Shown here piece after piece: positions 33,950-64,000 of a stretch of 64,000 nucleotides of DNA; within the stretch, counting starts at the first letter, position 1; the number at the start of each line of letters is the position of its first letter. The notes under the pieces were generated by a model, which did not search any database, was not told where the DNA came from, and saw only the letters and a list, made by a program, of their open reading frames with translations. Source of the DNA: Massariosphaeria phaeospora (taxonomy: Eukaryota > Ascomycota > Dothideomycetes > Pleosporales); contig JAADJZ010000020.1 of the NCBI GenBank assembly GCA_011032825.1, positions 620,001 to 684,000 of the forward strand, in the 5' to 3' direction. Both the position numbers and the translations under genes were made by a program.

Positions 33950-36900
33950 ATCATCATTATCTACCCATTATCACATTTTCACCACCACTCCACCTGAACG
34001 TTCACCATCACACTCTTCACACATAGCACCGTCCAGAAATATTCCGGCACTCATTTCAGCGAGTTGACCAGAGTTTTTCGCTGAGATATTTCCATTCTCG
34101 ACGGAACGACTCATTACTAGCGAACTGAGGGCTTTTGGACGGCGGCTCCATGTTCAACAACGTTCTTGGTGTCAGTGGTTTGGATACTATCTTCTGTCAA
34201 GGAGGAGACACCGCAGACATAGGCCAACGATCCTCAATTCTATTGGAGTGCACCGCATGTAAATAACCCAAGTGATATGGGGCAAATTCGCGTTGACTTG
34301 GAGATGTAGGGAGCTGGCTGTCGGTTTTTCACATGGGTTCGAAGCGGATCTTGTTTTAGAGAGAAATCGGAAGGCTAAACCATACACACGATGTTGAACG
34401 GTTTTCGTCCATTATATCTTTGCGACAGAAAGCGCGCAAGTCCCATGTTCGGAGCTGCGCTAATTTTGGATCCCATGAACTCGGCGGGAAATGTTTTTTT
34501 AGTCAGACCACGGCAATACGGTAGATTACCACTCGGAGTTCAGGAGGGAGGGAGACGCTTGCGTTTCTTTTATTTACAAACCGCCCGCCACACATCGCCG
34601 TCCTCCCGGTGGGGTTTCTTGTAGTTTCAATCTAATATATCTTTTGCGGCCGAGACAGCGCAGTCTCCATTGACATCCGAAACAACACATTTGCTTCAGG
34701 ATTCTAAAATCGATGATTTTCTCGAGTCAACGTGTGCAGGCTGAGCTTGCGAGGCTGGGGAGACATGGGTAAAGTGGACCCGTGTTTTGTTTCTAAAGCG
34801 AGCGCCACACATCGCGTTTTCTTCTTGGTTCTTTTCGGCAGCACACCTCATGGGTGAATGCCAGTATAGCCTGTAGTTCTGTACATTGAGTGAGTGAACT
34901 TGTGCTGAGAAGCTGCGCTCGACATGGTTCTATCTAGCTGGCGTTTTCTACCCGAAGCATAGTATGGCCGGCCTTCGGTTTAGGGATGCATATTATGGCA
35001 ATGCATCGCCTTTTTAGGAGTCAAAGAACGCATGAAACGTGTTGGTATTGTTTTTAAGAGAGTGACTCCTATAGGGAATGTTGTGACGCGAAGAGAGGAG
35101 AACCCATACATCGATCGTGATGACTTTTAGTTGATTTCCCGCTTATAGGAGTTGGTGTGACGAAGAAGAACATGTTGGCTGCGACTAAAGCTGATTTTAC
35201 GCGGCCCATGTGGAAGTACTCGGACATGGACGTGTTCAAGTGTCTTTTTCAAGTTCATTTTCAAAGCCTTCATTCATGGATACGTCCATCTAGTTTTTTC
35301 TTTGGCTTGTTTCTCATCATCCGACGACAGCGAAAGCGCTAGATCCATGCATGATATTCTTCACTGATTTATCATCGTCTACCATATGCAGTTGTCTGCG
35401 GCCATGATCGCTTGGCATGTTTATTTCTATTGAGATCGCGGTTACTCGCGAAGGTCATGAATATGTCCACAGTGCGTTTTAGGACTCCTATGCTTATTGT
35501 TTCATTCATCTAAATATCGTATTGCGAATTTTGTAACAGTTCGAGGGTACGACAGCATCTCTTCAGCTCATAGCGGTTGCCAAGGTCAGTTTTCAAAGCA
35601 GTGATGCTACCCTTGAGATCTGCGCTCATACGAGTTATCGAATAAAGGCGCATAGAGAGTGGTTCTCCAGCGGGTTGGAAGGGAGAAGGTCAAGTAGCGG
35701 ATGATGTAGGGTTTGAGAATTGGTGAGGGGAATTCTCATAGGGAAGGTTCGTTTCACTTTTTGATAGTCTAAAGCAAGTTGTGTGTGCAGGAGATTCATG
35801 GAGAAAGAGAAGGTGCTTTTATAGCCGTCTTTGATATATGGCCGTAGATAGATCGCGAAGATAAGCGGCACTGCGCATGAAACTTGACCATGAAGCTTTT
35901 CGCGGGCTTCTTTGGACATGGTTCGTCGCAATCTGATATTTTTATGGAAAACAGTACGGGCGTTTATCTTCGGAACATGTTACGATGTATCCGTGGCTTA
36001 TACTATTCGTTCCGGCAGACGGAAATATCGATAAACAATGTGAATAACGCGTATAGAACCATATGAGGCATAGACGGCGATTTTGTCGAGGCCAAGAGCT
36101 AGAGTGGTGGAGGTTTTCCGTAGCCTATTTAGTATCAGAATTTGAGTCACTCACTCACAGAGTGCTTCACAACATGATCTTGGTTCACTCGTATTTTCAT
36201 CCATTTGCGATACGTTGATTTGTTTGTAAAGAGATAGACCACACCCAAGATATATGGAATACTGCGTCGAAGAGACAGGATAACCATTTGCATATCAAGT
36301 CTTCCTTTCGTATGTTGGGTGGCCTGGTCTTCGAATGCTCCTCACTCATAATCAGGAGTCTTGAGCCATTCTCAAGAGACAGGAGGTCCGTCGCAGTGTA
36401 TAAGCCTCTACAGCGAGGTGCGTATGAGTTGGTATAACCCCTCATTCACTCAAGCCGTCCATAACTTTTGTGCATGACAGGGTGAATTTTCGAATTTGAT
36501 TCAGGTGGCGGAGTAAGCGAGTTGTCTCATTTCATTTGAATTCCAGCGTTATAGGTTCCGGCGTACAGAACATGTCGAAATTGGTGTCAATATTGGTATA
36601 GTCGAAGGCCATTGAAGTTCAGGACCGCCCATTTTGAATGCCTAAACTGTCCCCATGATAGGATTACCAGTACATAAGATATATTCAAAGTATCGAAATC
36701 CACAAGGATGTATATGAACGCAACGGCGCTTCAGCATAGTTTCGCTCAGTCGATCGTGTAGCCGCTTTTTGAGCCAGTGCGGGAAATTCCGCAACTCTGT
36801 GTACTCCGTCACACCCATGACTCCTTTGCACAGGTGTTTTTTATCTCATTTTAACCCCAACCGTGGAACATCGTTCAAGTTTATTCCAGAACAGTGATCA

Positions 36901-37170
36901 GGATGTTCGCCACGCCCGGAACCACAACATGGGTATATACTCTCAGTTTCCAGACGAGAACCCAGCCCATGCGGCTATCGTGCTTGAATTTCTGATAGCG
37001 TAGAAGCTCCACTATCTCTACAAGCAAGAGCGAGTCGAGTACATCGATCTCCGAAGGGGTGTTTTTGAATGCTGCGGACTGTTTCATAGAAGTGTGGGAG
37101 GTGTATGAGGTTTGAAGAGCGAGGAATCTTTATATTCTTTTTGTGGCGTACTTTCAAGACGAGTGATGCC
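33950..37170. repeat. Left, most degenerate part of the cassette array
   Basis: No gene is seen in 3.2 kb. Phrases of the array to the right recur in weakened form: CATG followed within about 20 bases by a T-run (about 34478, 35033, 35459), CGCCACACATCGC (34585, 34801), GAGAGGAGAACCC. One cassette is still readable on the minus strand: a TATAAAAG box at 35816-35823 and an ATG at 35739 that opens 34 codons ending at 35635 (MRIPLTNSQTLHHPLLDL). The left border is uncertain. Confidence 0.4.
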
Positions 37171-40100
37171 CAGAGATGTCAACAATCAATTCAGATTGCG
37201 AGATTGAATTGATTGATTGATTTGTCATCAATCAATCAATCAATCTCGCAGGCGCTCTCATAGCAATCAATTCAATCTGAGATGCCTGGATTGATTGGAT
37301 TGAATTGATAACGATCCAAGCCCCCCCTCCCTCGCCCCCCTGCCTAACTTTGGTGTTGCTGAGGGCGTAAAGTAGCCAAAATATAAATTGCCTAAGTTCG
37401 ATTCTCGCCAAAAACGTAAATATTAAAATATTTTCGCTTAGCTGCCTATCTTAGGCTTAGCGCCGCCGCGTAAAATTTTCTGAAAATCTCAATTTCTTAC
37501 GCGCCTCTCAACGCGTACATCTACACTCTCATTGCCGCCGCCCACGCCGCCTACAGTACGTATTTTTGACGCGCTTTTCGCTCGTACGCTTACCTGTTAG
37601 ATGAACTGTAACCTTTTCGCCGTATTTTCGCAGCGCGTCGATCGCGAGGCAACGCAACTGTCGGGTGCTGCGTCATTCTACCAGGCAACTGATACCGATT
37701 CTACGATCGACGATACGCCCGCCTACGATCCGTTTACTGCCTCTGCCGATGGAGATTACCAAGGCCTAGATTGGACGCGCGTCCTAAATCTGATAAAGCC
37801 ACCGTACAGCGCAAAGCGCAAACGCGAGAGCTGGGTGTTTCAACATGGCTAGCGCCTATGGCACCGAAAAGAGGAGGCGATATACTGGCTCTGCAAGTTT
37901 TGCTACACACACAAATCAATGGGTGGATTATACAAAGCGGCAGAGGCTACCTCAGCTATAGCGCGGCATCTCGGCGAGCAGAAACCTGGCCATGGTGTTG
38001 ACAGAGGTGGCTCTATAACGTTCAAAAAAGAAGCCTCTATCGTCGCGCATTTGCACCGCCGTGGCCTCGGCGTCAGCCAAGCAGTTGCTAATGAGATTGT
38101 TGACAGCTTCTCGCCGCGCGTTTTTCAACAGGCGCTTATTGACTGGATTGCGACTGACAATCAAGCTCTCCGCGTTATCGAGGTGCCTGCGTTTCGTGAG
38201 ATGATCCAGGCAGCCAATCCGCTCGCCGAGCGCGCTCTCTGGCGGAGTTACAATACGGCGCAGGCGTACATTATGGAGGAATACAACGCCTACCTGCCTG
38301 CTGTTGTTAGCTACCTAAAACAGGCGCGCTTAGCGATCTACATTTTATTTGACAATTAGACGTCAATCGGCGGCAAACGGGCGCTTACTAGAATCTGCGT
38401 ACATTACCTAAACGCAGCGAGCGAGCAGGTAAACTACCTGCTTGGCCTGCCAACGCTGTCGGGCGAGCACTTCGGCGCAAACGTTGCAGCAATCGTAAGC
38501 TCAACTCTCCGTACGTTTCATATAAGAAAAGAAGCCCTAGGTTACTTTGTACTTAATAACGCTTTTAACAACGACACCGCGATCGACGCTCTAGCAGAGG
38601 AGTGCAGCTTCAACGCAAAGCACCGGAGATTGCGCTGCACCTGCCACATACTCAATCTCGCCGCCTAGCGCGTAATATTTGGCCAAAATCGTGAGGCGTT
38701 TAAGAACTCAAATGACACTCTCGCTGTACGTACGCCTCGCTCTCTCAAATCAACCTAGCTAACCTATACAGGCAGAGGAGGAGTACATGAACGAGTGGCG
38801 CAAAGCTGGCCCGCTTGGAGTACTGTTTGACGTCATCGCCTCAATATGTACTCCGCAGGCTCGTGAGTTGCTAGAGCGCTTTCAACAGGATGAGGCTACT
38901 TAGCTGGGCACCGCTACACCCAAATTTACGCCTAAGGAGCTCAAAAAACCAGTCAAGACGCGCTGGAATTCTTACTACGACTGCTTTAAGCGCGCTGTTG
39001 AGCTACGGGCGCCACTTGATGATTATATAGCGCACAAATCAGGCGAGTACAATCGCCACACAGCTCGCCGCCAACCTCGCGCAGTTGCTCGCCCTCTCGA
39101 CGCCAGCAAATCTCGCCTGTTTATTAGAGAGAGCAGGCTTACAGGCAAAGATTAGGCTACTATAACGAAGTATCTCGAGCTGCTCAAGCCTTTCAAGGAG
39201 GCGACTAGCTGGCTTGAAGGCCGAGGCAGTGCTGGCCGCCATGGCGCGATCTGGGAGGTGATCTCTACGTTTGAGTAGCTTACTAATGCGCTGGAGGCTC
39301 TGCGTGAGCGAGTTGACGCCGTGGATTACAACGATCCCGACGCGCCTGAGAATCACGTCAAAACCAACCTCAATCTCGCTATATCTAAGATTGAGGAGTA
39401 CTACGCAAAGTTTGAGGACGCCCTAGCGTATTACGCTGCTCTACGCCTTCATCCCGCCTACAACAATTACGTTGATATCGCCTGGAGAGTACCGCCAGAT
39501 GATGACGTAGATGGCCACCCGCGAGAGGAGTAGCTAAAGGCCAACAACAAGGGCTTTCAACTGCTCTGGGCGAGAGCCAAGGAGAAAGCTGCCGCTGCCG
39601 ATCCTGAGTCACCACAAGCGCCCTAAAGTAAGAAACTACGGCCTGATTACGCACTCAATCGCACCGAGTTTATGAGAGCTACGATGAAAGAGGGGGAAAC
39701 TCTTATAGATATAGAGGACGAGTATGAACTGTGGAGATTAGAGAAAGCACTTGATCTCTCTCACAAGCTCGCTCAGCAGCCGATCGCCTACTGGCTGTCA
39801 AAAGAGCAACAGTACCCCGTCTTGGCACAGTTTGCTATGGATATTTTGAGTATCCCTGCCGCTGCGGCAGATTGCGAGAGGACTTTTAGTGAATTGGCAG
39901 ATTTAATAGGCGTACAGAGATTGCGGATGCTCCCTGACCTACTCTCGGCGCTGCAGAGCCTTCGCTCCTAGAAACGCCTTGGAATCCAGAAGTCTAAAAC
40001 GCCCTACAAACCTAGCTATATACCAGACCTGACGATTTGCCAAATCAACGAGTACTTAAACCAATTCACTGAGTTTGGGGCTGAGGAGTAGGATTACTAA

Positions 40101-40231
40101 TCAATCAATCCAATTCAATCCGAAAACTCGTCAAATCTTATCAATCAATCCAATCAAGCTAGGCAGAGATTTTTGAGCAATCAATCAAGCTCGCGGCAGC
40201 GAGCTTGATTGATTGATTATTGACAACTCTG
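37171..40231 (+). mobile_element. hAT transposon copy 1, 3061 bp, degenerate
   Basis: The ends read CAGAGATGTCAACAATC (left) and, reverse-complemented, CAGAGTTGTCAATAATC (right). GTGATGCC flanks the element on both sides (37163-37170, 40232-40239), a perfect 8-bp target duplication. Subterminal regions are packed with AATCAATC/GATTGATT repeats, probable transposase binding sites, some arranged as hairpins. Inside lies one plus-strand transposase gene with many stops. It belongs to the same family as copy 2 at 49308. Confidence 0.92.
37601..40091 (+). pseudogene. hAT transposase, broken by about nine lesions
   Basis: A 5' UTR intron (GTACGT donor, TTAG before ATG 37601) precedes MNCNLFAVFSQRVDREATQL. 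The BED-like region is damaged by a frame change near 37850. The RNase-H-like core follows (PAVVSYLKQARLAIYILFDN, then GGKRALTRICVHYLNAA, EALGYFVLNNAFNNDTA, RRLRCTCHILNLAA). After a short intron (donor GTACGT near 38733) it continues with EWRKAGPLGVLFDVIASIC and VKTRWNSYYD. The hAT dimerisation region at the end is well kept (ADCERTFSELADLIG). In-frame stops are nearly all TAG, mostly where the other copy or the family has Trp or Gln (TGG or CAG), i.e. TpG-to-TpA or CpA-to-TpA changes. Confidence 0.9.
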
Positions 40232-41377
40232 GTGATGCCCTACTACGTCAATTCCAACGGACATGCTTTAATAAGCTCGGTCATTAGGTATTTTGGATTA
40301 TGTCAGAGGTCCGACGGAGATACATTCCAAAAGGCCTAGGGTGCTTTTGAGTTGCGTAACCGCTTGACGTTTTCTGCGGAGTTTAGATAGGGGTTGAGGG
40401 AGTAGAAATCTTTCGGAGTCCACAAGAGTTTACACAACTTGTAGGCTTTGTGGTACAGGAGAGATGTTGATGTCGAGTAATTAGGTGAACCACGGAGGAC
40501 ATAGTGAATGTTCTTTTTCGATATTTAAGCGCAGAGACATGCGCTAGGATGCCATGCGTTTTATATTCAATGATGCTCCATTGAAGAATACGCGAGGAGA
40601 AACATGTATAACATCGCGGCGGGTTTGAATTGGAGCGAGCGATTATGTAGAGCTAGAGGGGCGACCGAGAGGAGTAGAGGATCCTTACAACGCTGTCGGA
40701 GTACCTCGACCAGGAGACGCAGCACGCCATGATATGCCATTGCGGAGAATTCCATAACATGGCTGAGGAATGGAACAACTGGAGTTCCCAACGAGGCACA
40801 TTCGGCCAAGCCTTTGGTAGTTTTAATACTGGAAAGTGTTGATTTCCGTGTAAAGAGACGGAGGTCAGGTAGAGTGGGTTCTTTCTAGATCTCCTCGCAA
40901 AGGACCATACAAATTGTACCCCACACTTTGCGTCCATGGAACAGCCAACAAGATTCCCAAGGAAGCGCCAGAATCCGGATCCCTCAGACAAACTCATACA
41001 GCGTGAAGAATCTGAATTTCAGTAACAAAATTGTTCATGCCGTGTGAAAAGCCAGGGTATTAAAGGAGTAAGTTCTGATTAATTCCCAACTCCGTAGCCT
41101 GCAGAAGCAAGCCGCGCGACATGCATACTGTTGTATATGTTTTCACATAGCTGAGATTCGTGAAGCGTAAGCCCGTTAGAGATACATGAATTGTAAGTCG
41201 TACAGTTTATAGCAATGAGGACTGTGATATGATGCGGAGTAGGAAGCAAGTGATTCCCACGGTCGAAACTGTCCGCGCAACATGGAACCCATTGAGACTT
41301 ACTTTCTGCGTCGACATACATAAGGGTGCTTGAGAAAGAATTACACAGGAGAACCATTGAACGCTTAAAGAATGGGT

Positions 41378-41698
41378 TTATTGTAGTGAGAGTCGTGAGG
41401 TTGTGCGGCGTAGAAGAGAAAGAAGCAGCAGGAGGGTCTTAATATCGTCTTTTAGGAGTCGTGGCGGATGCATGGGCTTTAGGTATGCATTTCTTCTATC
41501 CAAGACGTCCATTAGAGTGCGTATCTGCGTTTTATAGGTATTTTGGTATATATCGTTCCCGAAATGTACATTGAGAGAGAACGTAGGAGGTGAACGAAGA
41601 GCTTCATATCCGCGGTCTTCGTGCACAGATAAGATCCGCATTACGTTCATTATTCGGAGTGTGTGGATTTTGAAACATGGAAGCCGCGCGCAAAACAT
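41378..41698 (-). CDS. Cassette ORF, 106 codons
   Basis: The longest ORF of subfamily 1. It starts exactly at the cassette ATG (41698), 79-85 nt downstream of a minus-strand TATAAAG at 41777-41783. N-terminus MFCARLPCFKIHTLRIMNVM is similar to the neighbouring cassette ORF openings (RCPRFKMHTFF in the ORF from 42067). The rest matches nothing I know. Translation is unproven. Confidence 0.25.
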   Translation of the reverse strand: MFCARLPCFKIHTLRIMNVMRILSVHEDRGYEALRSPPTFSLNVHFGNDIYQNTYKTQIRTLMDVLDRRNAYLKPMHPPRLLKDDIKTLLLLLSLLRRTTSRLSLQ

Positions 41699-43487
41699 AT
41701 GTGTGATCGTTCCCCAATCTTTTAGTTAGCTGAGCGCTACAGGGTGCGAGGAGGAAGCGAGAAACGATACAGGGTCCTTTATATTTGCGATCTTTGCGCA
41801 AGAGGGCCGCACCACAGTCATAGTGTTAGTTTGATTTGAGCTTTTGGAATGCGAAGGCGCGCAGAACGGCACATGTCAGTTATCTCCCCCTCTTTTAGTA
41901 CAGCAAGTTGCTGTAAATATATGAGGAGGAACAGTAGAAAGACCGAATCCAGGGTCTTCATGTCGGCGTTCTTCGCAAAACAGGGGAATCGCACGACGAT
42001 CATGATAGAAAAATGTGTGCATTTTGAATCGTGGACAGCGCCCGGAGGCCCATGTGCTGTTGTCCATGTTCTTTTTAGTGCAGCTAGATGCTGCGATTTG
42101 CTTGAGGGAAGGAACTCCAAGGACGAGTCAATAAGGTCTTTGCCAAAGAGAACGACTCCTTGTTCATAACTTGATTCGCTTGTGACTTTTCAGCCGCGGA
42201 CAGCGCACAACACACATAGGGAGGTTTGACATGTATTTTTTAATGTAGCTGAAGACCCACGCGGGTAGGAAGCGAAGTAGAAAAGAAGATATCTGTATAT
42301 GTGCCTTCCCGGCGGCAAAAGTCGCACCACGTTCATAGAATGTAGGGTATGTGGTTTCTGAGACGCAGGAAAGACACATTTTGCGGTACAGAAGGTTTTA
42401 AGTGCAGCCAACCGCGACGTAGCCCTGCACTAAAATAGACGCCCGATGTTCATACATACGTGATTTTGAGAATTAAAGACACCTTGTATGTTCGGACACC
42501 TAGCGCCGCGCAAGCAGGCACATATACGATCGACCCGGCAAGTTTTAGTGTAGCTAGATGCTGCGACCTTATGTGGAGAACAACAGTAAGAAGTAAGACT
42601 CATTGAAATCCTGATAGTAGTCTTTTCCAGGAGTTGAGACGCAGAACCATGTACGGGACGATCTCCCGTTTTAATCCAAATATCCGACATGGCATCAAGG
42701 AACCGAAAGCGCCTCCGGCACATGAACCGTAACCTTGAGTACTTTTTGATACAGCCAAGAGACTACGGCATGTTGTAGGGACAGGAAGTAGGCAAGTAGA
42801 ACATAACAGAAGATGATATAGATCTTCGTTTCCAGAACTACCATAACACACACTTCAAATATTTCAAGTGTTCGTAACGCCCAACGTGCTCAGGCAGCGA
42901 AAGACGCCCAAAGAGGCTCATACCAGACTGGATTGGGCCATTTATAGCCGTCAAGAGCCACACCTTAGTACGAAAATCTAGGTAGAAAGCAAGAGAACAT
43001 GGATTTCTGGATCCGCGATCTTCTCCCCAATCCAAAAAGCACATCATGTACAGTGCAAAGTCTTTCAATGATTCCAGACGGTCAATATGTTGACGCTGCA
43101 AGACGCACAAAACGACATGTCGCTTTCGCTTTCGGATTTTCAGCGCCGCAAGACCCAGATCCGTGTTGTCGAAGAAGGGAGAGCACACGACCACATGTCT
43201 AGTCGTGGACGTTTTTTTTATATGTAGTAGACGCTCGAATCCTTCGCTGCGGTGTGCGGGAAGGCAGAAGGCAGCGAGAGGCATGACTTTTCCGACTACC
43301 TTTTTCCAAACTCAACACCCTCGACATGTCGGCTTGGAGAGAAGTTTTTGGATCTGAGATGCCTGCCCTAGTTTCGAAGAACAGAGAGTGCACGACGAGA
43401 CATGCGTTCAATGCCTAAATCTTTTGATGCAATAGAACACTGAAACGCTGCACCGTGGCGGTAAGGAGAGAAAGCAGGAAGCGAGAG

Positions 43488-43607
43488 TCATAGGCTCGTC
43501 CCTCTATCATTTTCCAAAACGAAGACGCGACATGTGAGTTTGTTGAGTAGTTTTAGAGTCAAGACACTCGCGCTGTGCTCGGCGAGCAGAAGGCCCACGC
43601 GACACAT
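43488..43607 (-). CDS. Cassette ORF, 39 residues
   Basis: Opens at the CACATG motif (ATG 43607) with MCRVGLLLAEHSASVLTLKL and ends TGA 43488. The homologous ORF one unit away (ATG 43813) is cut by a stop at codon 4, so conservation is not uniform. Confidence 0.2.
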   Translation of the reverse strand: MCRVGLLLAEHSASVLTLKLLNKLTCRVFVLENDRGTSL

Positions 43608-43995
43608 GGCCTACCTCTTGGACGTTTTCAATGCAGTGAAACACTTGAACGCTTCACGGCAGTGTTGAGAAAGGAAAGAGGAAGCAAAAGCCGTTGAGTC
43701 GTCCTGGTGGCGTTTTCCAAAACAGCGAGACGCGACATGTGAGTTTGTTGGTTAGTTTGAATCTAAGACACCCGCGATGTGCTTAGCAAGCAGAAGGCGC
43801 TCAACGCCACATGTACTTGTTTTTGGACGTTTTCAATGTAGTGCAACACTCAAGTGCTTCACTGTTGTGTTGAAGAACCATCATACGATCCGAGACCATT
43901 TTTCGAAACGGGAGACGCGCAACATAGCAAATCTGCTCAGGAATTTCCAGATTCCAGAACAGGAAGGCGCACCCAACGAGATATCAGCATTATTG

Positions 43996-44142
43996 CTAAG
44001 ATCTTCTAATGTCGCAGGTAGCATATCTGTGTCGAAGAACCAAAGTCGCACCAAACACATGAAGAATGTCGAGAGTGCTTTTCAGTGCATTGAAGGAAAA
44101 CATGCACGTTGTCGAGCACGAAAGGCGAGCAGAACAACACAT
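43996..44142 (-). CDS. Cassette ORF, 48 residues
   Basis: Starts MCCSARLSCSTTCMFSFNAL at ATG 44142, about 93 nt downstream of a TATAAAG box (44234-44240, minus strand), and ends TAG 43996. The opening resembles those at 41698 and 41874. Confidence 0.25.
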   Translation of the reverse strand: MCCSARLSCSTTCMFSFNALKSTLDILHVFGATLVLRHRYATCDIRRS

Positions 44143-44330
44143 GTATTGTCTGGCAGTAATGTTTTAGTACAGCGTAATGCTGAAGAGTAGTGTGAGGAAA
44201 GAAGGAAGAAGAGAGAGAAGACGACGAGGGGTCTTTATACTTCGGCAGATCTGCGGCTCACGTGCGTGATATGAAACGCAGACTCGGATTAGCGCTATGT
44301 AATGCTGTGCATAAGTAAAACAATCATATG

Positions 44331-52515: not shown

Positions 52516-52617
52516 CTAACAGCCATCGACATATCCTGAACGACTCTCAATCTCGCATCCAACATAACAAGGTGTGCTTCTGACTTTTAGTTGAGCGTCT
52601 TTTGCGGGCAGCACCAT
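52516..52617 (-). CDS. Cassette ORF, 33 residues
   Basis: Opens MVLPAKDAQLKVRSTPCYVG at ATG 52617, 94 nt from its TATA-like box (52711). The neighbouring cassette at 52915 opens MVLPAEDAELKVGWRD and then stops. Confidence 0.28.
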   Translation of the reverse strand: MVLPAKDAQLKVRSTPCYVGCEIESRSGYVDGC

Positions 52618-53649: not shown

Positions 53650-53763
53650 CTACTCCCCCATACGTTGCTCATCTGTGTCTGGCTTTTTAATACAACCAAC
53701 TACACATGATGGAATCTTGTCTTGGTTTTTACTATCCAGCGCCCTCTCCAAGCGACACACCAT
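53650..53763 (-). CDS. Cassette ORF, 37 residues
   Basis: Opens MVCRLERALDSKNQDKIPSC at ATG 53763, 89 nt from the TATATAAG at 53852; ends TAG 53650. Confidence 0.25.
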   Translation of the reverse strand: MVCRLERALDSKNQDKIPSCVVGCIKKPDTDEQRMGE

Positions 53764-54743
53764 GAACATACCAGAGCGAACTTTCAAATGTGTGAATTAA
53801 TCTGCTTGAGGTGTGTAGAGAAGAATGTGGAAAGAGGAATGCGGGAGGGGGCTTATATACCCCTCGGTCGAAGATTCAACTCCTGGTGTCGATGATTATC
53901 ACTATCGCCACGCATTCCCATCTCTACTGCTCTGCCTCACAGCTCTTGTCGCCACATGCGCCCTGTTCACGAACGACCCATTTTTTTGATCTCTTTCAAT
54001 TTCTTATTCCGGCATCACGAGAGGTGCTTTTGTTCCGCCGTCCTCTCCAGGCAGCACCATGGCCAATGCTCGAGCGGGTTTTAGTAAGAGGATACTTCTT
54101 GTATGTGTGTAGGAAAGAAGAGGGAGAGTACTCGAGAAAGGGGCTTATATGGGTAGGCTTGACGCGGGAAGGGCTTCTTTGGCTCCTGATGATGATGGTC
54201 ATGCATAGCCACCATTTCCTCGTTTCTCCAAACGTCACGTTTCTGGAATTATTCTCGGCCTCCTGTCTACGACGCAGAAACACATTCGCTGTTTTCTATT
54301 GGTTTAGCGTCTTCTGCGGGCTGCACCATCGACCGGTACTTTGGCGGTTTTGGTATGTAATCCGAATCAAATCGAATACGTGGAGAGGAAAGAGCCAGAG
54401 AGGACTGCGGGAGGGGGCTTATGCATGTGTCTTTGCGGTGCGAGTGCGTGCCGATTGCCTGCTCCTAGTCTTGATGATCGTCATCATCACTATCACCATT
54501 ATCAAACCTTCGTTCCTCCGCTTATTTCACCCCCCCCTTTCTGCCCATCATGGTGGAATGAATTGGCTATTTTCTTTTTTTTGGCTTGAGGACTTCTGCT
54601 AGCGACTACATAGGAACCCATCGAATGAATTTTAGTGTGTAAATCGAATCGAACGTGTGTGAGGAAGAGGACAGTAGGGGAGGGCTTTTATATTCAGGTG
54701 GGTAGTTTGGAGGCTGGAACTTCAAGCGGCCAGGTGTGTAAGG

Positions 54744-54881
54744 TTACTTGATGATCATGATCACGTCAAGCCCCATCTCCCGATAACGCATTTCCAGAAG
54801 CATTTCCAGTTCTCTGTCCTTGTGCCATGCTGGATTGGGGTCGTAGTTTTTTCGCCGTCGTCTCAGCGCTGCACTCGCCAT
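54744..54881 (-). CDS. Cassette ORF, 45 residues
   Basis: Opens MASAALRRRRKNYDPNPAWH at ATG 54881, 91 nt from the TATATAAG at 54972. It ends ...VIMIIK-TAA at 54744; the MIIK part is encoded by the conserved GATCAT element, which here would be both coding and regulatory. Confidence 0.25.
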   Translation of the reverse strand: MASAALRRRRKNYDPNPAWHKDRELEMLLEMRYREMGLDVIMIIK

Positions 54882-57348
54882 CATTGAACTGTACTATTCT
54901 TTTTAATGCAGACACTTCAACTGATGGTTTGTGTAGAGAGAGAAAGAGGGGGAGAGGACTGGAGAAGGGGACTTATATAGGGAGGTTTGAGGCTGGGAGT
55001 CTAGTCCTTCGAGAAAGGGCGTGCGAGTTTGCGACGGATGCGGATGCTAGGCATCACTATCCGTTGACGATCATCATCACCACCTCGCCCTTCTCTATCA
55101 ACCCTGTTTCTCCAACGATCAACAGCCAAGGACATATGTCCGAGTTTTGCAGCCCTTTCTCGTGCCCCCATGCATGAAGTTCCAGACAATTATATCTTCT
55201 CCGCGCCCAACATCGATAGACGAGGCAAGCTTTTTAGTGAGCACAGAAGCGAGTACATTGGTAGAGAGAAGAGAAAGGAAGGAAAGAGATTTGGGGGGGG
55301 GGGGTGGGGTTTAATATGCTTTTGCCGCAACTCGGGCTTGAACCAAAAAAACAGGAGGCGAGGGCGCAATGCATGCCACGGACACACTTAGGTTTCAATC
55401 TTGTGTGATGATTATCGTCATCAGCAGCAGCACACTCCTCCTATCTTTGTATCCGCTTTCCATGTCCCCATGGCGACCAGTTTTTGGCTCTCGCGTCTGG
55501 ACTCCGGAACACCCTTCTCGAGCATTCAATTTTATAGTAAATACTGGGGCGAGTGCGATGGCGGAGAGAAGGAGATGGAGCGGAGTAGAGGAAGGGTCTT
55601 ATTTACCGTTGCGGATAGGAATTAGACGGAGATGAAAGCGGGGATAGCTGAGAAGGAGTGTTTCTCAGCAATGTCCATCACCACTAGTAACTCACCTTCA
55701 CACGGATTCCACACAACCCATACTTGTCGCTGTTTTGCGAGACGCCCATGCGGAGTGGGTTTTATCTCTCGCTTCCAGGCACCGTAACATTAGTCAGATT
55801 TATGTTGATCTTGTAATAAGCATGGCGGGAGTGCGTCGATAGAGAGAGAAGAAAAGGGAGTAGAAAGGAAGAGCTTATATAACTTTGCCGCGGCTACTCG
55901 CTATTGATCAGACGAATAACCTCTGATGAAAGCATTGCGCCACGACACAGCGTTGACGATGAGCATCATCGCGCCCCGCATTTCTACTCGAAAACTACGC
56001 ATTCTGCACTCCTAACTTTGTTTTCCACATCTCGCTTCCGAGCGCCGCACCATCCATTCTTACCGCTAGGTTTTTGGGATTGCCACAGGTAGTGCGTTCA
56101 TAGAGAGAAGAAAGGAAGTGGTGAACAGAGGGGGCTTATATAACTTTACCGCCGATATGTGGATAGTCAGAGAAGAGCCGATGGGAAAAGGAAACGAGCA
56201 TGCTACGGCGATACTAAGCGATTATGATCATCCTCACGCCTCGGACTCCCAACATGCACATACCGAAATCATATACTTGTTCTTTAGGCTTCATGCCCGG
56301 CAGTTTTAATCTTTCTCTCCAAGCGCCGCATCATGCGTCCCTCGATGAGGTTTTTTTTGTACTGAGCACAGAAGCGAGTGCGTTGGTAGAGAAAATAATG
56401 AATAGTGGTCAGATGCGCTTATATACCTTTACGGGTGAAGATTGGGACTAAGCAAGGCGAGAGGAGAGGATAGGATGGTGTACGAAGTTTCACGTTGACG
56501 ATCATCACCACCATCAGTACCATGTCTCATGCCTTCGGCCTCTCTTCTTCAAGCGCCGCCACATATCCCTATGCTCTGTCTTTTTTTTCTCAACTTTGGC
56601 AGTGTGGTTGTATTTTCGAACTGGGCACAGAATTGAGTGCGCTCTTTGCAGCGGAGAAGAAGGAGAGGAAGTAAAGAGGGGCTTATATACCTTTGCGGAT
56701 GGGAAATCAGGATGGAGGTAAGTCGCAGTCTCTCGTTTGACGATGATAATCATCATCATCGGCACACCTCACACTCCTCTATGCTTCATGCTTTATCCTT
56801 GCATGTCTTTCTTTCACTTCCCGCCGCCCCAACATTCGGGTCGTCTTCGCGGTCTTTTTTCACGAGCGCACGACATAGTGAATTGATAGAGAGGAAAAGG
56901 AAAGTAGAAGGAGGCCTATATGCCTGTGCGACGCAGTGTTTGACGAAAGAGAGTTGAGCGTGTGTGAGGGTGCGGTAATGCGCATTATTAGTCTCCCAAG
57001 TAACGCGACAGAATCCCTGTCTTTCACCATTCCGTTTCTTCCAACCTTACGCGCCCGAACAATCATTCAATAGAGAAATGTTCTCGCGAGCCCATGGACG
57101 AGTCTCCTTTGATTGAACATTCGGTGGAACATTCATTTTCCTGCAACGAGCACAGCGGGAAGAAGTGCGTTAATGAAGAGAAGGAGAGAGAGTAAAGATA
57201 GGGGTCTACCGTAGATACGTTCGAAGGTAGGGCGTGTGAGTGTGTCTCGCGCTTCACGATTGCATCATCATCATCGCGACATCAACAATGAGACTCCGCT
57301 TGAGCTGTTCGCGCAAACTTTCTCATCGCGACATCATCGTCACAGTCT

Positions 57349-57443
57349 GGCGGGTTTGGCGCGTTCTGGCGGGTTTGGCGCATCCAGGCGGGTTTGTCGC
57401 ATCCAGGCGGGTTTGTCGCATCCAATGCGGGTTTGGCACATCC
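57349..57443. repeat. 19-bp minisatellite, five copies, inside the array
   Basis: GGCGGGTTTGKCGCATCCA starts at 57349, 57368, 57387, 57406 and, altered, at about 57425. The third and fourth copies are identical. It lies in the longest gap between TATA boxes (57205 to 57863). Confidence 0.88.
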
Positions 57444-59300
57444 GAGCGATCTCCGAGCGGGTGTGGTGCGCCCGAGCGCGTTCTGCGGATTTCGCCACGA
57501 CATGCCTCCGCCAATCCTCCCGCATCACAACTCAATATCCCACGACACCTCGTAATAGAGAAGTTTCCTTTGCTCTCGAATGGAATGCGATGCAACTACA
57601 TTTACTTGAGAGGGAACGCCAATATTATGTGCAAATCCTCATCATCACTTGCAGACTCCTGGTCCCAACTCACCCATCAATTCATCGATCCCTCTCCCTC
57701 CGTTGACATCCAAGCTTTGCGAAATCTCACATCGTACCGCGTCTTGCCGTTTTCAATTCTCTTCTCACGGCAACATCAATCTGCTACAATGTGGTTTTGT
57801 TTCGGAGGTAGAATGCTCTGTGGGTGAGAAGAGAAGAGAGTTGATGAGGGGGGAATAGGGGGCTTATATCCTTCGCGCAGGCGTGTAGTTGGACAATGTA
57901 AACGCGCCTCGAAACGAAGCATCAGAGATTCGCTATCATCAGGGTGAGATGCTCAACATCAGCGCTGCACTTCGTACCCTCATTCTCCTATCCATCGTCC
58001 CACTCCATCGCCCTTCTTTGAAACATGCCAATCGTATCTTTTCTTTTTTAGTCTCTCCCAGTACATATTCTGATGCTTTTTGATCCGCACCACCCCACAT
58101 TCTCGAGTCTGATATATCTTTTAGTACGGCAGATCGCGCCGAGGATGAAAAGAGAAAGGAACATCAAGGAGTAGAGGAGGGGCGGGGCTTCTGTATATGT
58201 TCCGCTACCAACCAATCTCGAGTATGCGAGTGCGCCGATACGAAGCGTTGAAACATCGGCACTGTTAAAGAAAGATGCTCAACATCAGCATGCACTTCGC
58301 ATCTCCATCCTCACCCTTGTTTTTATTTCAAGATATTCCTTATAAGCTAGAGGGCCATGATTTGGGATCTGCTCCGCACACCAACATGAGGAGGTCGGCG
58401 CGAATTTATTTTAGAGGTAGTAGGCACTTCGTGGAGGAAGTGAAATAACGCGATTAAGACACGCAGGTAGGGACTTATATACCTCGTAGAAACTGCTTCG
58501 ACTAGCGCTCGTGTATCATCACCACCGCTCACGGACGTTCAACTGGCGCATCATCACCTCTTCCAAACACCCCCAATCGCTTCCGCATCGCTTCATGCAC
58601 TGCGTCGAATGTAGTACCACTCAACAACGTCCCTTTTCCTTCCTCCATGCACCTTCTTTTCTTGCACTTTTGTTTGGAATCTACACGGCGCAGCAACATG
58701 ACATCGCTTATCGGATCTTTTCTGGTTTCCTTCAGCGGCGGGAAGACGTGGGGAAGCAAGAGAAGAGGGGGGAGGAAACGGGCTTATATATCCTACCTAA
58801 GGTACAACAAGGGATTCCGAATCATTCGGAGGCTTTGAAGTCTTGTCGCAGCAGTGTTCCTCACTATCATCAGCTCAACATTTTGCACCGCTATAGCACC
58901 ATCAACTCTCTGCGCTCCGCATAGACCGGATCCCACGTTTATAATCTACAAGTCTCCGATCCGAAGTCATAAGAATTTGGTTAGGTCACTTTAATTAACT
59001 GCACAGCAGAACTTCGAATCCACATCGACTGGTGGTCGGCGGTAATTTTAGAGACCGAAAGCACGACATATAATCGGCTTTTTGAAAAGCAGCAGGAAGC
59101 TGGCTAGGTGAGGAGAGAAAGAGGGAGCGAATGAATGGGCCTTTATATCTCTACGTATCTCGTAGCGATACGAATGCTGTTCCAATTTTCGTTCTTGGAA
59201 CATCGCCGTCCTTCGTTTTCCTTGTTGGGACGATGATCGTCACCAACATCTTCTGTCTTTCTCCCTTTACTGCATCTACGATTACGAGTATACTTTGAAG

Positions 59301-61700
59301 TCTTGCACACTACTCAACACAACATGTTGAAGCAGCCCTTGCCATTTAGCAACTGCACAAGCTGTAAATTACCTAAGCTTCTTCCAGAAGACATGCACCA
59401 TTATTAGTCCACATTTTCGAAAGGTCCACATAAAGACATTTCGAAAAACGTAGTTGTAGGATAAGAACCTGAGCAAAGTGCTTCGATTCAAAGCTTAAGC
59501 CATTCGTCTGATTTCCTGAAGTTTTCGTTCGCAAGGAATGCCGAAGCATAACATCAGTCTTCGCGATATTCTATCTGAAAGACGAGTTCACTGGGCGTAG
59601 AAATCAATTCGGATCGTCGGCTCTCACCATAGACTCCCTATGCTGTATTTTTCGTGAACATGCACTGTGCGCCACGACTGCACAGCTTACGCCATGCCAT
59701 AAACACCTCCAGCCCGACATGAACGTGTCTGCAAAGTGTTTCAAGAGAGACGAGTTTGAAGGAAAGTATAACGCTAGAGCTTAGTATGGGCTTGAGCATA
59801 CGCTATCTTTTTTTAGAGGGATGCTGTTGAGGGGCAGGAGGATCTGAATGCCTTTTCACACTCTGCATTCCGCTCATGACTGTATCAATGCATCTTTTTG
59901 ATACTAAGAAGCTGCTGGGACATGGAGAACTTCGCAGAATGTCATTCCCTCCACAGCCAGCATGAAACCGGTCTACTGCGGGCGGCCTCCCGGATATTCG
60001 TTCGCAATCTAGCATTTTCTTCAGAGCATAGTCAACCAACTCGGGACTTTCCAACATGGTAACAGATGCCGAGTCCTTTTCTTCCGAACACACAACATCC
60101 CATAATGCCAATGTCTCTGAGTTTTTCCCCAGGATGAATTCTTATTCGGCTCATGGTATGTCTGCTAGCAAGATTCCGAATAGCCCAGGATACACAGGAC
60201 ATGCTGGGATCGAAGACATACTTTGTCTCTTCTATCCTCGTCCGCGTCCAGACTCCAGTCCATGATTGCTCGATAGCAGTGATTTAAGTCGTCGTGCTCT
60301 CGGTGCAAAAGAGCAACTCCTAGCCATTGCTAGCAAATTTAGTGTTTCCAATCTTCGCATCCTCCTCTCTGCTCATGTCCACTCCATGAAATGCATCCGC
60401 TGGAAATTTCATCAATAGATGCCATAACGATTTGGAAGTAGGTCCGCGAGATAGCGGGGTTACAGCCATGCATCGCTCTCGTAATACTTTTGAGCACAAC
60501 TCAAGCCCCGGGAAACATGGCAAAGGTGAGAGAAGGTTTTTTTTTCAATAGAGAGCCGTCGTCCTCCAGTGATCCATGTGTAGTTTGCTTTCTCCAAATA
60601 ACACCCACAAGATCTCTAGACATCCTTTTCTCTATCTTGAATTCGAGTATTCTCTTAGTCCAGGTTCCACAGCACATCTTGCAGGGGGCTGAATTATTTT
60701 TCGCCCGAACGCACACGCTCTCTTGCCGGTACCCATTCATTTCACAGATCCCGCCTTTCTACGTCCTATGCCTTGTTCATTGTTCGATTCCAGTTATGCG
60801 TAGCCAAGTCCATTTCTTCCTGATCTGCTTTTTTGTAGCTCCCACACATAGTGATGATGTGGCGAGGGTTCTCCCCCAATTCCTTCAACGCTTCCTCCCA
60901 AGGATTAGTAGCTCGCACTTTTTCATATCTAGACCCACGCGTCCAAGCTTCCCGGCCATACTCATAACGATGTAGAGCTTTGAATCTTCTCTTTTTATCA
61001 ATGTCCCCATAGCTGAGGTGCTTTTTTTTTTCAACCATGCCACAGGTTTTCCCATATTTCCATCATCATTACTTAGTACTGTTTTCAATCTCCAATTTTG
61101 ACCGGTACGGCTTTTCCAGCCGCACCATGTAGCGGGCACTACTAGCTTTTGCTCTCCAGCTCCACAGAACATAGCCAAAGCGCCAGCATATTCCACGACC
61201 CACACGCTTCCAGCCTCCCATGACGTGCCAATTTCACTACCTTTTGTCGATATTGAGCCGCCCCACGGAGTTTTCCAAACCATGCATAGAACCAATTGCA
61301 TTTTGAAGTTCCTCTTCCTCCTAAGGTCCAAACTCCACTCCATGCGCTTTCCACTCCTCATAATCTGTCTCAAACTCATTTCTTAATTCTAGTCTCCAAT
61401 TTTCAAACATGTTCTTCCAGTGTGGTGTTTCCAAACCACCTTCCCACACTTCGCTTCATGCGCATGCCGCGTACGTAGCACGCAGTCTTTCCGTGGCTCA
61501 TCACCATCTTTCAAGGTTTATTCTTTGTAACCCCCACAAACAATCTCTCCAGCCAATAAAGACTACTCTTCCTATTTGCAGACTTGCCGTCTTGTTCAGA
61601 CAACACGCGTCCACTTCCTTCGGGGTTTTCCTTTCCAAACGCAGCATAGCTGCTCTGCAACAAACTTTGCTATTGAGGACGCAGGGAACAACATTTCATG
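59301..61700. repeat. Poorly resolved stretch between array subfamilies 2 and 3
   Basis: Array phrases occur only sporadically: GCTTTTCCAGCCGCACCATG at 61110-61129, CCAAACCATGC near 61276, GAGGTGC followed by a T-run and CAACCATGCC near 61015-61040. Minus-strand ORFs of 90-164 codons (61038-60766, 61379-60885) are open but have no recognisable domain. It is either very diverged array or unrelated spacer. Confidence 0.35.
59803..60057 (-). CDS. Hypothetical ORF, 84 residues, weak support
   Basis: From ATG 60057: MLESPELVDYALKKMLDCER, then RPPAVDRFHAGCGGNDILRS and a basic Pro-rich end. The frame stays open upstream to a TAA just before 60150 without an ATG. It reads more protein-like than its surroundings, but no family is recognised. 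Confidence 0.25.
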   Translation of the reverse strand: MLESPELVDYALKKMLDCERISGRPPAVDRFHAGCGGNDILRSSPCPSSFLVSKRCIDTVMSGMQSVKRHSDPPAPQQHPSKKR

Positions 61701-61736
61701 GATAATGCTGTGATTTTAACATCATAGCGAGGCTCA

Positions 61737-62177
61737 TTACCGAGTTCCACTCGAAACCAGACATGAATCTAGTTCCCTCTGCTTTTCGTATGCATCGGCC
61801 AGAAGCGACGTCAAGCGGGGACCGGACATTTGACGTCTTGGGATATTTCTATGGAGCGCGGGAGGGAGCACCATAACGGCTGAAGCTAGATTTTCAAAGC
61901 GGCGGTGGCGTAGAGTGGGAATGTAGTGAGATAGTAGAAAACAGATGTCGAGTACCGAGTCCCAGTGGACACCAGATATGCCATCAGTGGATATGGTTTT
62001 TTCAGACCGCGGGAGAGCGCACCATACGTTACGGGGATTCTTACTTATAGCGCGATTGTAGACCATGTAGTATAGTATATATAAATGCTCAATCGAGACG
62101 TCGAGTACCGACTTCCAGTCGAAAGCAAACATGTCGTCCGAGGCCATGATTTTATAGACTGCGGGAGAGCGCACCAT
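61737..62177 (-). CDS. ORF of 146 codons across three subfamily-3 units
   Basis: Starts at cassette ATG 62177 (MVRSPAVYKIMASDDMFAFD). A WKSVLD segment recurs as WDSVLD about 50 residues later in the same frame although the DNA period is 152 bp, so small indels restore the frame. It ends TAA 61737. It may be chance openness of low-stop DNA. Confidence 0.25.
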   Translation of the reverse strand: MVRSPAVYKIMASDDMFAFDWKSVLDVSIEHLYILYYMVYNRAISKNPRNVWCALPRSEKTISTDGISGVHWDSVLDICFLLSHYIPTLRHRRFENLASAVMVLPPALHRNIPRRQMSGPRLTSLLADAYEKQRELDSCLVSSGTR

Positions 62178-62855
62178 ACATTGCAGGGAGTCTTACTTAT
62201 AGCGCGATTGTAGACCATGTAGTATAGTATATATACATGCTCAATCGAGACGTCAAGGACCGAGTTCTACTCGAAACCAGACATGTCGTGTCTCTCTGCG
62301 GATTTTTTGCCAGGCCCGCGAGGCGCACCATCGTTCGAGACCTGTATCTTTTACAGCGCCATTTCCAGACAATAGAGTCTATGGGGAATCCACGATAGAG
62401 ACATTAGGTACCGAGTTTAAAGCAAAACCAGACATGGGCCTAAACCAGGTGTGATTTCTTCAAAACCGCGAGAAGCAGCATGAAAAGACGCGCTCAGTGT
62501 TTATAGCGTCACTGAATAGCCTTGAACGTACTACAGATGTATGATAGGAACGTCGGGAAGTGAATCTGAGCAAGGGCAGACATTCAGATTCGGCATAGGA
62601 ATTTTACCAAACCCGCAAGGGGCACCATGGCGCGAGGCGTTCAGGCTTTTACAGCGCCATGCCGTGCCGTCCAGTGTAATTCAAGTGCTCAACAGAGCCG
62701 TCGAGTACCATGTCCCAGTCGAGAGCAACCATTTGAGGGGCTCATTCTTGATTTATCGAGGCCGCGAAGAACACCATAAATGGAAACATGTTCCGATTTT
62801 GGTCGAGCCCGCGAGCAGGAGCATGCCCAGAAAATGCTGGTGTTTTTTTACAAAG

Positions 62856-63569
62856 CTATTGCATAGCTGTAGTGTGTAGAGCGAGATCGAAACAAAGATT
62901 GGAGGGGCTTATATAGGTGCGTGAACGAGACATGTCGTATTTGAGTTTAAAATTTATTGAGGCCGCAAAGAACGCCATAAATAGGGTCCACTTTGGATTT
63001 TCGTCGAGGCCGCGAGCAGCAGCATGCCCTAGAATGTTCATGAATTTTAGACCGCTTTGCAGCATGTGGGGTGTAGAGAGAAACCGAAACAAAGATATAA
63101 AGGGCTGATAAGCGGAGCACCAGTCATGCAGGGGCGTTCCTAATGTTTTATCGAGGCCGCGAGGAACACCATGCACTGAGAGACTGTATTGTTTTGAAAC
63201 TGGTATGCAAGCCATGGGGTGAAATAAGAGTTCTCGAAGAAAAGGTGAAGTATTTGATATCGGTTTGTAAGGAGACATGCGTAATGCCGACGTCGGTTTT
63301 ATCAGGGCGGCGAGCAGCACCATTAAGGGTAATATTCGTCTTTTTAGGTTTCCACTATGGATTGTGAAGTGCAGAGAGAAGTTGACGGAAAGGTTGAAGG
63401 GGCCAGACATGTATTCTGTTTCAGTGATTCTGATCAAGGCCGCGAGCAGCACGCACCATCGACAACCTCTGGCTGATTTTTTCACATCGCCACTTGGGAA
63501 CATACTTTGTGGAGAGAATCCCCAAAACAGAAGACCGGAGTAGAGTATGTAGATGCATGAACCATACAT
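62856..63569 (-). CDS. ORF of 237 codons across five subfamily-3 units
   Basis: The longest ORF in the right third. It contains five related segments of about 48 residues, two in one frame sense (CVLLAALIRITETEYMSG, MVLLAALIKPTSALRMSP), two shifted (HGVPRGLDKTLG, HAAARGLDENPK) and one back (MAFFAASINFKLKYDMSR). The shifts argue against one conserved long protein. The individual ATG-started pieces are the more natural unit. Confidence 0.22.
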   Translation of the reverse strand: MYGSCIYILYSGLLFWGFSPQSMFPSGDVKKSARGCRWCVLLAALIRITETEYMSGPFNLSVNFSLHFTIHSGNLKRRILPLMVLLAALIKPTSALRMSPYKPISNTSPFLRELLFHPMACIPVSKQYSLSVHGVPRGLDKTLGTPLHDWCSAYQPFISLFRFLSTPHMLQSGLKFMNILGHAAARGLDENPKWTLFMAFFAASINFKLKYDMSRSRTYISPSNLCFDLALHTTAMQ

Positions 63570-64000
63570 GGCAACTTTTCAACTGCCTTTTTCGGGGAAG
63601 CCGCCGGAAAACACCATACATTGGCGTTCCGTTTGATTTTGGAGCACTATTGCAAGCCGTAGAGTATAGCAAACAATGTTGTCCGAAGAGAAAACAGGAT
63701 TGAGGTATGTAGATAGATAGGCATGTACGCAAACCAGACATGTACTTTGTTGACTTAAGTTTTTCGAACGAAGCAGTGAGTCGCACATTTGGCACCTGAA
63801 TGCTCTTTTTCGAATGAGCCTGATTGCGGAGCCAGGAGTATAATAAGAGGTATTGAAAACAAGACCAGAATGTACGATGTAGGTACGCAACCCAGACATA
63901 CCGGGAACTCCGCTGGTTTTTTTCGAACGAAGCAACGAGTCGCACATTCAGCAACTGGATGGTCTTTCTTGAATGACACCGATCGCAGATCCAGGAGTAC

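What the first reader, a model, noticed from the sequence alone, without database searches (positions are those of the whole stretch)
33950..64000. A 25-30 kb array of promoter-plus-micro-ORF cassettes
Outside the two hAT elements and the nitroreductase gene, the right half of the window is built from at least 35-40 diverged tandem cassettes. Seen on the minus strand, a typical cassette has in fixed order: a GATGATCGTC-like element, TATATAAG (or TATAAAG), a C-run, a CT-rich tract, ACTAAAA, 15-20 variable bases, ATG and a short ORF. Established: TATA box, CT-rich block and leader are what fungal RNA polymerase II promoters look like. Inference: this may be a family of tandem micro-genes (short peptides or short RNAs) with shared control and variable products. 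I know of no described fungal system with this layout. An inert satellite that merely contains TATA-like sequence is the main alternative.
Basis: partly seen in the sequence, partly recalled or inferred. Interest (0 to 1): 0.88.

Follow-up and report, generated by a model that had tools for sequence, protein, structure and literature searches.

The report
Fungal module arrays with variable 18-mers
A mould genome carries, in dozens of places, one-directional arrays of a small module in which about 18 letters of arbitrary sequence sit at a fixed spacing between an A-run and ATG, some of them behind a shared promoter; this looks like a dispersed family of non-coding guide-type RNA genes, but no RNA data were available to prove it.

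Summary
With no selection beyond the two motifs, A-run (4 or more A) followed by ATG 21-24 nt after its start occurs 141 times on the minus strand of 33.9-64 kb and 6 times on the plus strand, and never inside the two hAT elements or the nitroreductase gene. Promoter cassettes (GATGATG, TATATAAGCCCC, CT tract, CTAAAA, V, ATG) form a subset: 31 minus against 0 plus at E<0.01.

The assembly is Massariosphaeria phaeospora and the array is one of many: a strict promoter-module pattern gives 204 genome hits against 3 reversed. Modules often come in pairs (99 of 151 promoter units).

Micro-ORFs fail frame tests. Hairpin microRNA fails pairing tests. An inert satellite does not explain the shared motif order.

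Best reading: non-coding minigenes carrying interchangeable guide-length segments. Limits: V diverges like background DNA, not faster; no outside target of V was found; no transcript was seen. A two-point binding site with a free spacer is the main rival.

The parts
33979..37170 (-). A-run/V/ATG modules (28 in 33,901-37,170), with few or no recognisable promoters
   Evidence: weak promoter hit 35737-35825
40232..45066 (-). A-run/V/ATG modules (29); one good promoter unit at 44139-44238
46744..49305 (-). dense promoter cassettes, left part of the core (10 units at E<0.01)
   Evidence: unit profile; R1 hits
52529..59154 (-). dense promoter cassettes, right part of the core (20 units at E<0.01 and 2 weaker)
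   Evidence: unit profile; R1 hits; sequence
59201..64000 (-). module-rich right end (36 modules); in 61.7-64 kb repeat-spacer layout: A-run, V, ATGGTG..CTCGCGGCCTCGATAAAA, V2, ATGTCTGG; runs on beyond the window
49292..49299 (-). example TATATAAG box of one cassette
49196..49303 (-). example unit in alignment A1: TATA, CT tract, CTAAAA, V, ATG
48932..49037 (-). example unit followed by a clear second CTAAAA-V-ATG module
37171..40231 (.). hAT-type element A, 8-bp duplication GTGATGCC on both sides; no modules inside
   Evidence: 69% identical to element B
49308..52401 (.). hAT-type element B, 8-bp duplication TTCGTGGC, inserted 8 bp upstream of a cassette TATA box; no modules inside
45067..46536 (+). 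nitroreductase-family gene within the array region, opposite strand; no modules inside
   Evidence: PF00881

Best explanation
The arrays are a dispersed multi-locus family of non-coding RNA genes whose working part is a module: A-run, 18-19 nt of interchangeable sequence (V), ATG. One or more modules ride on each transcript. Many are driven by their own RNA polymerase II-type promoter (GATGATG element, TATATAAGCCCC, CT-rich tract), others are read from further upstream or have lost their promoter. The A-run and ATG mark the ends of V, as start and pause/cut sites or as processing sites; the released piece of about 20-23 nt serves as a guide for an Argonaute. Shown here: motif order, rigid V length, no sequence constraint on V, repeated and paired modules on one strand, non-coding and unstructured character, spread over many loci, presence of Argonaute and RdRP genes. 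Inferred: transcription, processing, Argonaute loading, targets, and every step of function.
For:: 141 modules on the minus strand of the array region against 6 on the plus strand; 24 other loci hold 564 on their richer strand against 65 on the poorer (629 on both strands, against 92 and 150 at two control spacings; 6 of the 564 are false, from a 13-bp tandem repeat in L040); of 108 TATATAAG+CT+CTAAAA units, 91 have ATG at 21-24 nt although ATG was not used to pick units; without the 5 loci fetched from ATG-containing patterns, 69 of 83; in the window alone 4 of 5. CTAAAA to ATGG spacing is 17-20 nt in 97 of 125 sense pairs over offsets 5-44; the antisense strand has 4 pairs (19 loci and the window; L043 left out). 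[CT]TAAA to ATGG at 21-24 nt 173 times, at 31-34 nt 9 times; 99 of 151 promoter units have a second module, against 34, 26, 18, 10 and 14 at five control spacings; genome counts 129 v 1, 69 v 0, 204 v 3, 257 v 107 (pattern v reversed); positioned GATGATG; no hairpin or paired precursor; not coding; 14 Piwi-domain matches, grouped by me into 9 loci; a survey gives Pezizomycotina 2.66 Argonautes, range 1-7 (PMC4290597, passages). RdRP matches at 5 places.
Against: No RNA evidence of any kind was available. (30 disjoint pairs, leave-one-window-out): V keeps 0.038 excess identity, like the windows upstream of the TATA (0.023 to 0.047) and those 61 nt or more downstream (-0.008 to 0.036), so V is unconstrained but not shown to be diversified; the earlier contrasts compared V mainly with its two best conserved neighbours, and V does not differ from the window after those (p 0.3-0.65). 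No outside target of V: 146 V; two V, whole genome; 705 V against 228 kb. A few V are copied between modules of one array (L053; L059, L044 and the window). No guide signature: first base of V is A .39, T .30; the last base is C in about half (.47.53 in the window). The constant AAAA would lie in the seed if the sense strand were used. Only 110 of 245 CT-followed TATA boxes have a strict module ending in ATGG. The information content of TATA, CTAAAA and ATG in the profile is partly by construction. Some of the 9 Piwi loci show stops or split matches.
Confidence: 0.45

Rival explanations
1. Two-point binding site with a free spacer. The A-run and ATG are two contact points, 22-23 nt apart, of one protein or complex acting on DNA or RNA (for instance a core-promoter pair, or an RNA-binding protein that binds many sites in a long transcript). 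V is an unconstrained spacer and carries no information.
For: Fixed length plus free sequence is exactly what such a site predicts. V diverges like background. No outside target of V.
Against: As a promoter pair it is weakened by the modules without a TATA box (122 of 141 in the window) and by paired modules about 50 nt apart. The blocks next to the module are kept within an array (excess 0.152 and 0.143) but differ between arrays, which a common protein would not need. No fungal element of this kind is known to me (recalled).
Confidence: 0.3
2. Tandem micro-genes for short peptides starting at the conserved ATG.
For: Promoter-like layout and conserved ATG.
Against:: no third-position excess, 309 of 359 gaps break frame, ORF lengths like the other frames; upstream ATGs not avoided. 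The ATG recurs at each module.
Confidence: 0.05
3. Inert satellite, or decayed duplications of a gene's 5' end that happen to contain TATA-like sequence.
For: Tandem layout, many degenerate copies.
Against: Arrays at different loci are at shuffled identity outside the ordered motifs (cross-array). The module spacing survives where the rest has diverged. No parental gene seen: 7 of 10 flanking ORFs tested hit a family, mostly different ones.
Confidence: 0.08
4. Hairpin microRNA-like (milRNA) gene family.
For: Guide-length segment and RNAi genes. A single unit with a good downstream complement of V (L041).
Against: 115 V: own downstream duplex energy -12.17 against -12.26 kcal/mol for other arrays, p=0.7. 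No excess pairing between the blocks tested. No excess local folding. V1 and V2 not complementary.
Confidence: 0.04

Closest known systems
Nematode type-I piRNA (21U-RNA) genes
   Same: Many small units with a shared upstream motif, clustered in the genome, each with its own guide-length sequence and no hairpin. In the nematode each locus has an upstream motif that recruits Pol II to make an about 28-nt primary transcript (PMC6436959, passages), capped, from more than 15,000 loci (PMC7917550, abstract in listing).
   Different: Here TATA, CT tract and GATGATG instead of the Ruby motif; marks on both sides of V; modules often in pairs and often without a promoter of their own; a fungus; no RNA evidence, no 5'-U sign, Argonaute clade not tested.
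CRISPR arrays
   Same: Segments of near-constant length and mostly unique sequence between short blocks that are alike within an array and differ between arrays.
   Different: Eukaryote; blocks differ from copy to copy; inter-module distances vary; Cas genes not sought; no source of V found.
Fungal milRNA loci
   Same: Guide-length RNA hypothesis; same host machinery.
   Different: No hairpin and no star strand; arrays rather than single precursors.
Fungal satellite / tandem repeats
   Same: Head-to-tail diverged repeats, several clusters.
   Different: What is shared between loci is an ordered set of motifs with rigid module spacing, not a repeat sequence.

Membership tests
Nematode-type piRNA genes | promoter motif upstream of each guide | tested here: inconclusive
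   positioned GATGATG and TATATAAGCCCC in front of many V, but only 19 of 141 window modules have a TATA-like box 45-95 nt upstream
Nematode-type piRNA genes | SNAPc/Ruby-type motif | tested here: not met
   profile consensus is TATA + CT-rich without a GTTTC core; judged by reading, not by a motif-comparison program
Nematode-type piRNA genes | mature 21-nt 5'-U RNA from each locus | not testable with these tools
   no RNA data; first base of V is T in .30
Nematode-type piRNA genes | binding by a PIWI-clade Argonaute | not tested
   Piwi-domain genes exist; clade not examined
CRISPR array | near-identical direct repeats with unique spacers of constant length | tested here: inconclusive
   near-constant length and mostly unique V; repeats only partly alike
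CRISPR array | spacers derived from other replicons | tested here: inconclusive
   no outside matches within 228 kb; two V unique in the genome at 0-1 mismatch; no mycovirus set available
milRNA / microRNA | hairpin precursor pairing with the guide | tested here: not met
Protein-coding micro-gene | conserved reading frame | tested here: not met
Known Rfam RNA (snoRNA, snRNA etc.) | match above the family's gathering score | tested here: not met
   10 matches at E<=5 in 33.9-64 kb, all below gathering; 9 lie at hAT ends, 1 (IMES-5, 25.7 against 96.1 bits) overlaps a cassette on the opposite strand
Inert satellite | no motif conservation beyond the general repeat identity | tested here: not met
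   (cross-array)

The most novel reading that the evidence does not exclude
A fungal small-RNA immune or gene-regulatory repertoire: arrays holding several hundred or more fixed-length 18-19-nt guides, each between constant marks and many with their own Pol II-type promoter, an independently evolved counterpart of nematode piRNA genes with a CRISPR-like repeat-spacer layout, working with an enlarged Argonaute set.
Probability: 0.3. Interest if true: 0.96.

Novelty: categorically new. Interest (0 to 1): 0.84.

Why it matters
If V is a guide, fungi have a genome-encoded guide repertoire made without hairpins: an origin of piRNA-like genes independent of animals, and a clean system for asking how guide repertoires arise and turn over. 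If V is only a spacer, the arrays are still an undescribed family with a rigid two-point signal repeated 141 times in one 30-kb stretch and spread over dozens of loci. Either way one small-RNA library would decide much. My searches listed no paper that describes such a layout; the library holds open-licence papers only, so this does not show that none exists.

Tried and rejected
Peptide-coding micro-ORFs: rejected on frame tests (a first attempt failed on a file key). Hairpin or other structure: no signal between V and its unit, in the 30 nt after ATG, or between the blocks tested. Blocks before and after V related to each other: no (one search failed on an empty sequence). V1 and V2 related: no (48 units that passed a stricter second-module rule). 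Rfam: nothing above gathering. Repeat-induced point mutation as the cause of V divergence: dinucleotide indices of the array resemble the left half of the window, and V has 47% GC.

Diversification of V: I first read that way. The leave-one-window-out control shows V no more diverged than background windows, so I withdrew the claim. In one search one of 98 pairs (L046 with the window) is the same genomic stretch seen twice; it is inside the averages that I quote. The V2 pair test has 6 pairs and is uninformative.

Targets of V: 146 V against the window and 20 loci gave 5 matches of 16 or more of 18 bases against 2 for shuffles. Two V in the whole genome with up to 3 mismatches gave only their own place at 0-1 mismatch; the other places (3 and 3) compare with 6 and 2 for the reversed pattern. 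705 V (17 nt) against 228 kb of DNA: 13 best matches of 16-17 against 0 for shuffles, of which 6 come from one 13-bp tandem repeat, 2 from simple GGT/GAT repeats, and 5 (three pairs, one listed from one side) are copies between modules or near-modules of one array; none of the 13 lies in a gene or transposon outside the arrays. At 15 of 17 it was 44 against 24; I looked at one of these. A concatenated V query found not even its own places, so one search is uninformative.

Other species: not examined. The genome collections offered are prokaryotic, viral, phage, plasmid and E. coli, and metagenome scans were capped at zero.

After the hold-against-calls check I ran. They added the selection-free module count and showed that modules are denser than promoters and mostly lack a TATA box; because that weakens the promoter form of the main rival, I moved the guide reading from 0.42 to 0.45, the rival from 0.33 to 0.30, the novel case from 0.28 to 0.30 and interest from 0.82 to 0.84.
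Full report
What was checked. The finding describes diverged tandem promoter-like cassettes on the minus strand of 33.95-64 kb. The cleanest test uses the window alone and two motifs: a run of four or more A, and ATG 21-24 nt after its start. The minus strand of 33.9-64 kb has 141 such modules (21:18, 22:60, 23:41, 24:22) and the plus strand 6; with ATGG it is 55 against 0. Other spacings on the minus strand lie at 1-9 per offset over 12-35 nt. The left 34 kb has 9 minus, one of them the first module of the array at 33,979, and 12 plus. Density is 4.1-8.6 per kb in the five array stretches and zero in both hAT elements and in the nitroreductase gene.

Promoter cassettes are a subset. TATATAAG occurs 16 times in the window, 15 of them on the minus strand from 47.8 kb on, against 0.94 expected. 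A unit profile finds 33 minus and 0 plus units at E<0.01. A promoter profile from 99 units of other loci only finds 22 minus and 0 plus at E<0.001 and 24 and 1 at E<0.01, all minus hits in 33.9-64 kb. Model R1 (70 units, 9 from the window) finds 31 minus and 0 plus at E<0.01. Only 19 of the 141 modules have a TATA-like box 45-95 nt upstream.

Where it is. A window protein (DUF3431) matches a Massariosphaeria phaeospora protein at 100% over 92% of the query, on a contig of 775,840 bases like the window's contig: a Pleosporales ascomycete. The genome has 42.1 Mb in 51 contigs; the window is C13:620001-684000.

A genome-wide family. Counts of pattern against reversed pattern: TATATAAGCCCCY 129 v 1; TATATAAGNCCCN{46,76}CTAAAAN{17,20}ATG 69 v 0; TATATAAGN{56,86}TAAAAN{17,20}ATG 204 v 3; CTAAAAN{18,19}ATGG 257 v 107. 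Among the 100 listed of the 204 hits I count by hand about 37 places on contigs C1-C16, single hits included. I fetched 25 stretches chosen from such hits and used 24 of them in most counts, leaving out L046, which overlaps the window. They hold 564 modules on their richer strands against 65 on the poorer; both strands together have 629, against 92 and 150 at two control spacings; 6 of the 564 come from a 13-bp tandem repeat. The same stretches and the window hold 117 of the strict kind that numbers 204 in the genome, so the genome may hold some 300 promoter units and over a thousand modules (inference). In 19 of 24 stretches promoter units lie on one strand only; L043, L048, L053, L057 and L058 have both.

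Anatomy of a promoter unit. GATGATG 41-120 bp before the TATA (78 occurrences over 181 units; 3 between -40 and +140); TATATAAG and a C-run; a CT-rich stretch; CAC near +46 (about 1 bit); CTAAAA on average 73 nt after the TATA; V at 0.0-0.1 bit per position; ATG. The information of TATA, CTAAAA and ATG in that profile is partly by construction, since units were picked by them; V is not. Of 108 units picked by TATATAAG, CT content and CTAAAA only, 91 have ATG at 21-24 nt; leaving out L055-L059, fetched from patterns that contain ATG, 69 of 83; window alone 4 of 5. CTAAAA to ATGG over offsets 5-44: 97 of 125 sense pairs at 17-20, 4 antisense pairs in all (L043 left out). [CT]TAAA to ATGG at 21-24 nt 173 times against 9 at 31-34 nt. 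Many copies are degenerate: of 245 CT-followed TATA boxes 110 have a strict module ending in ATGG.

Paired modules. Of 151 promoter units with a first module, 99 have an ATG 35-95 nt further on with an A-run start 21-24 nt before it; control spacings give 34, 26, 18, 10 and 14. At the right end this reads as repeat and spacer: A-run, V, ATGGTG..CTCGCGGCCTCGATAAAA, V2, ATGTCTGG. V1 and V2 are neither alike nor complementary (48 units).

What it is not. Not coding: in 135 same-array pairs mismatch rates at codon positions 1-3 are .243.242.207, 309 of 359 gaps break frame, and ORFs from the ATG have median 21 aa against 17 aa in the other frames (114 units). ATG inside V is not avoided (81 against 54.6 expected). 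Not a hairpin: V against its own downstream 150 nt gives -12.17 kcal/mol against -12.26 for other arrays (115 units); no local folding after the ATG (175 modules); no pairing between the blocks tested. No Rfam family reaches gathering in 33.9-64 kb. Of 10 flanking ORFs given, 7 hit a family: sorting nexin, ankyrin, TauD, Zn2Cys6 factor, MatE, RTC4-like, and a weak PX; no common neighbour.

How V evolves. Within an array the 19 nt before CTAAAA and after ATG are the best kept parts and V is not: pairs with flanks of 0.7 or better (18 of 98, one a self-overlap) have left .71, right .79, V .45; disjoint nearest pairs put V below both neighbours (p 0.0007 to 0.02) but not below the next window downstream. 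The fair control is: for each 19-nt window, pairs were chosen by all the other windows. V keeps 0.038 excess identity over shuffles; upstream windows 0.023 to 0.047; windows 61 nt or more downstream -0.008 to 0.036; the block before CTAAAA 0.152 and the block after ATG 0.143. So V behaves as sequence without constraint, held at near-constant length beside constrained blocks; I do not claim faster than neutral change. A few V are shared between modules of one array (L053; L059, L044 and the window): V is copied with the module and then drifts.

Mechanism. Keeping borders and length of an insert, on one strand, in hundreds of copies, but not its sequence, is what guide-RNA genes look like; nematode piRNA genes are the precedent (PMC6436959, passages; PMC7917550, abstract in listing). 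The genome has the machinery: 14 Piwi-domain matches that I group into 9 loci (C4, C12, C15 three, C27 two, C30, C48) and RdRP matches at C1, C4, C5, C17, C48. A survey gives Pezizomycotina 2.66 Argonautes (1-7) and 3.04 RdRPs (2-5) on average (PMC4290597, passages). Some Piwi loci show stops or split matches (introns or decay), so the excess is only suggestive. Against: no transcript, no outside target of V, no 5'-U or seed sign, and the free-spacer rival explains the V pattern equally well. I give the guide reading 0.45 and that rival 0.30.

Novelty. No known kind that I tested fits: not a microRNA hairpin, not a Ruby-motif gene, not a plain satellite, not a peptide gene; the CRISPR likeness is one of layout only. 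Ten paper searches listed no description (open-licence papers only). I read passages of two papers and otherwise saw listings with abstract openings.

Noticed in passing
window 37171-40231 and 49308-52401: Two 69%-identical elements of about 3.1 kb with CAGA..TCTG ends and 8-bp duplications (GTGATGCC; TTCGTGGC), hAT-type; no transposase domain in the ORF pieces given; the second sits 8 bp upstream of a cassette TATA box.
   Followed up: partly
G000 C4, C12, C15, C27, C30, C48: About nine Piwi-domain loci in this ascomycete, more than the 1-7 reported for Pezizomycotina; several with stops or split matches.
   Followed up: partly
window 62004-62289: A 152-bp unit repeated 1.9 times at 90% inside the right-end array: a young duplication.
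   Followed up: no
window 43169-43873: A direct repeat of about 205-bp period at 67% in the module-rich stretch without promoters.
   Followed up: no
L053 about 2896-3320; L044 (minus strand) about 1190-1520; L059 (minus strand) about 2514-2645; window array (minus strand) near 48.2 and 48.5 kb: Neighbouring modules that still share most or all of V: recent copies that could date V turnover.
   Followed up: no
L040:7331-7413: A 13-bp tandem repeat (AAAACTGGAGATG) that mimics six modules and must be masked in module counts.
   Followed up: yes
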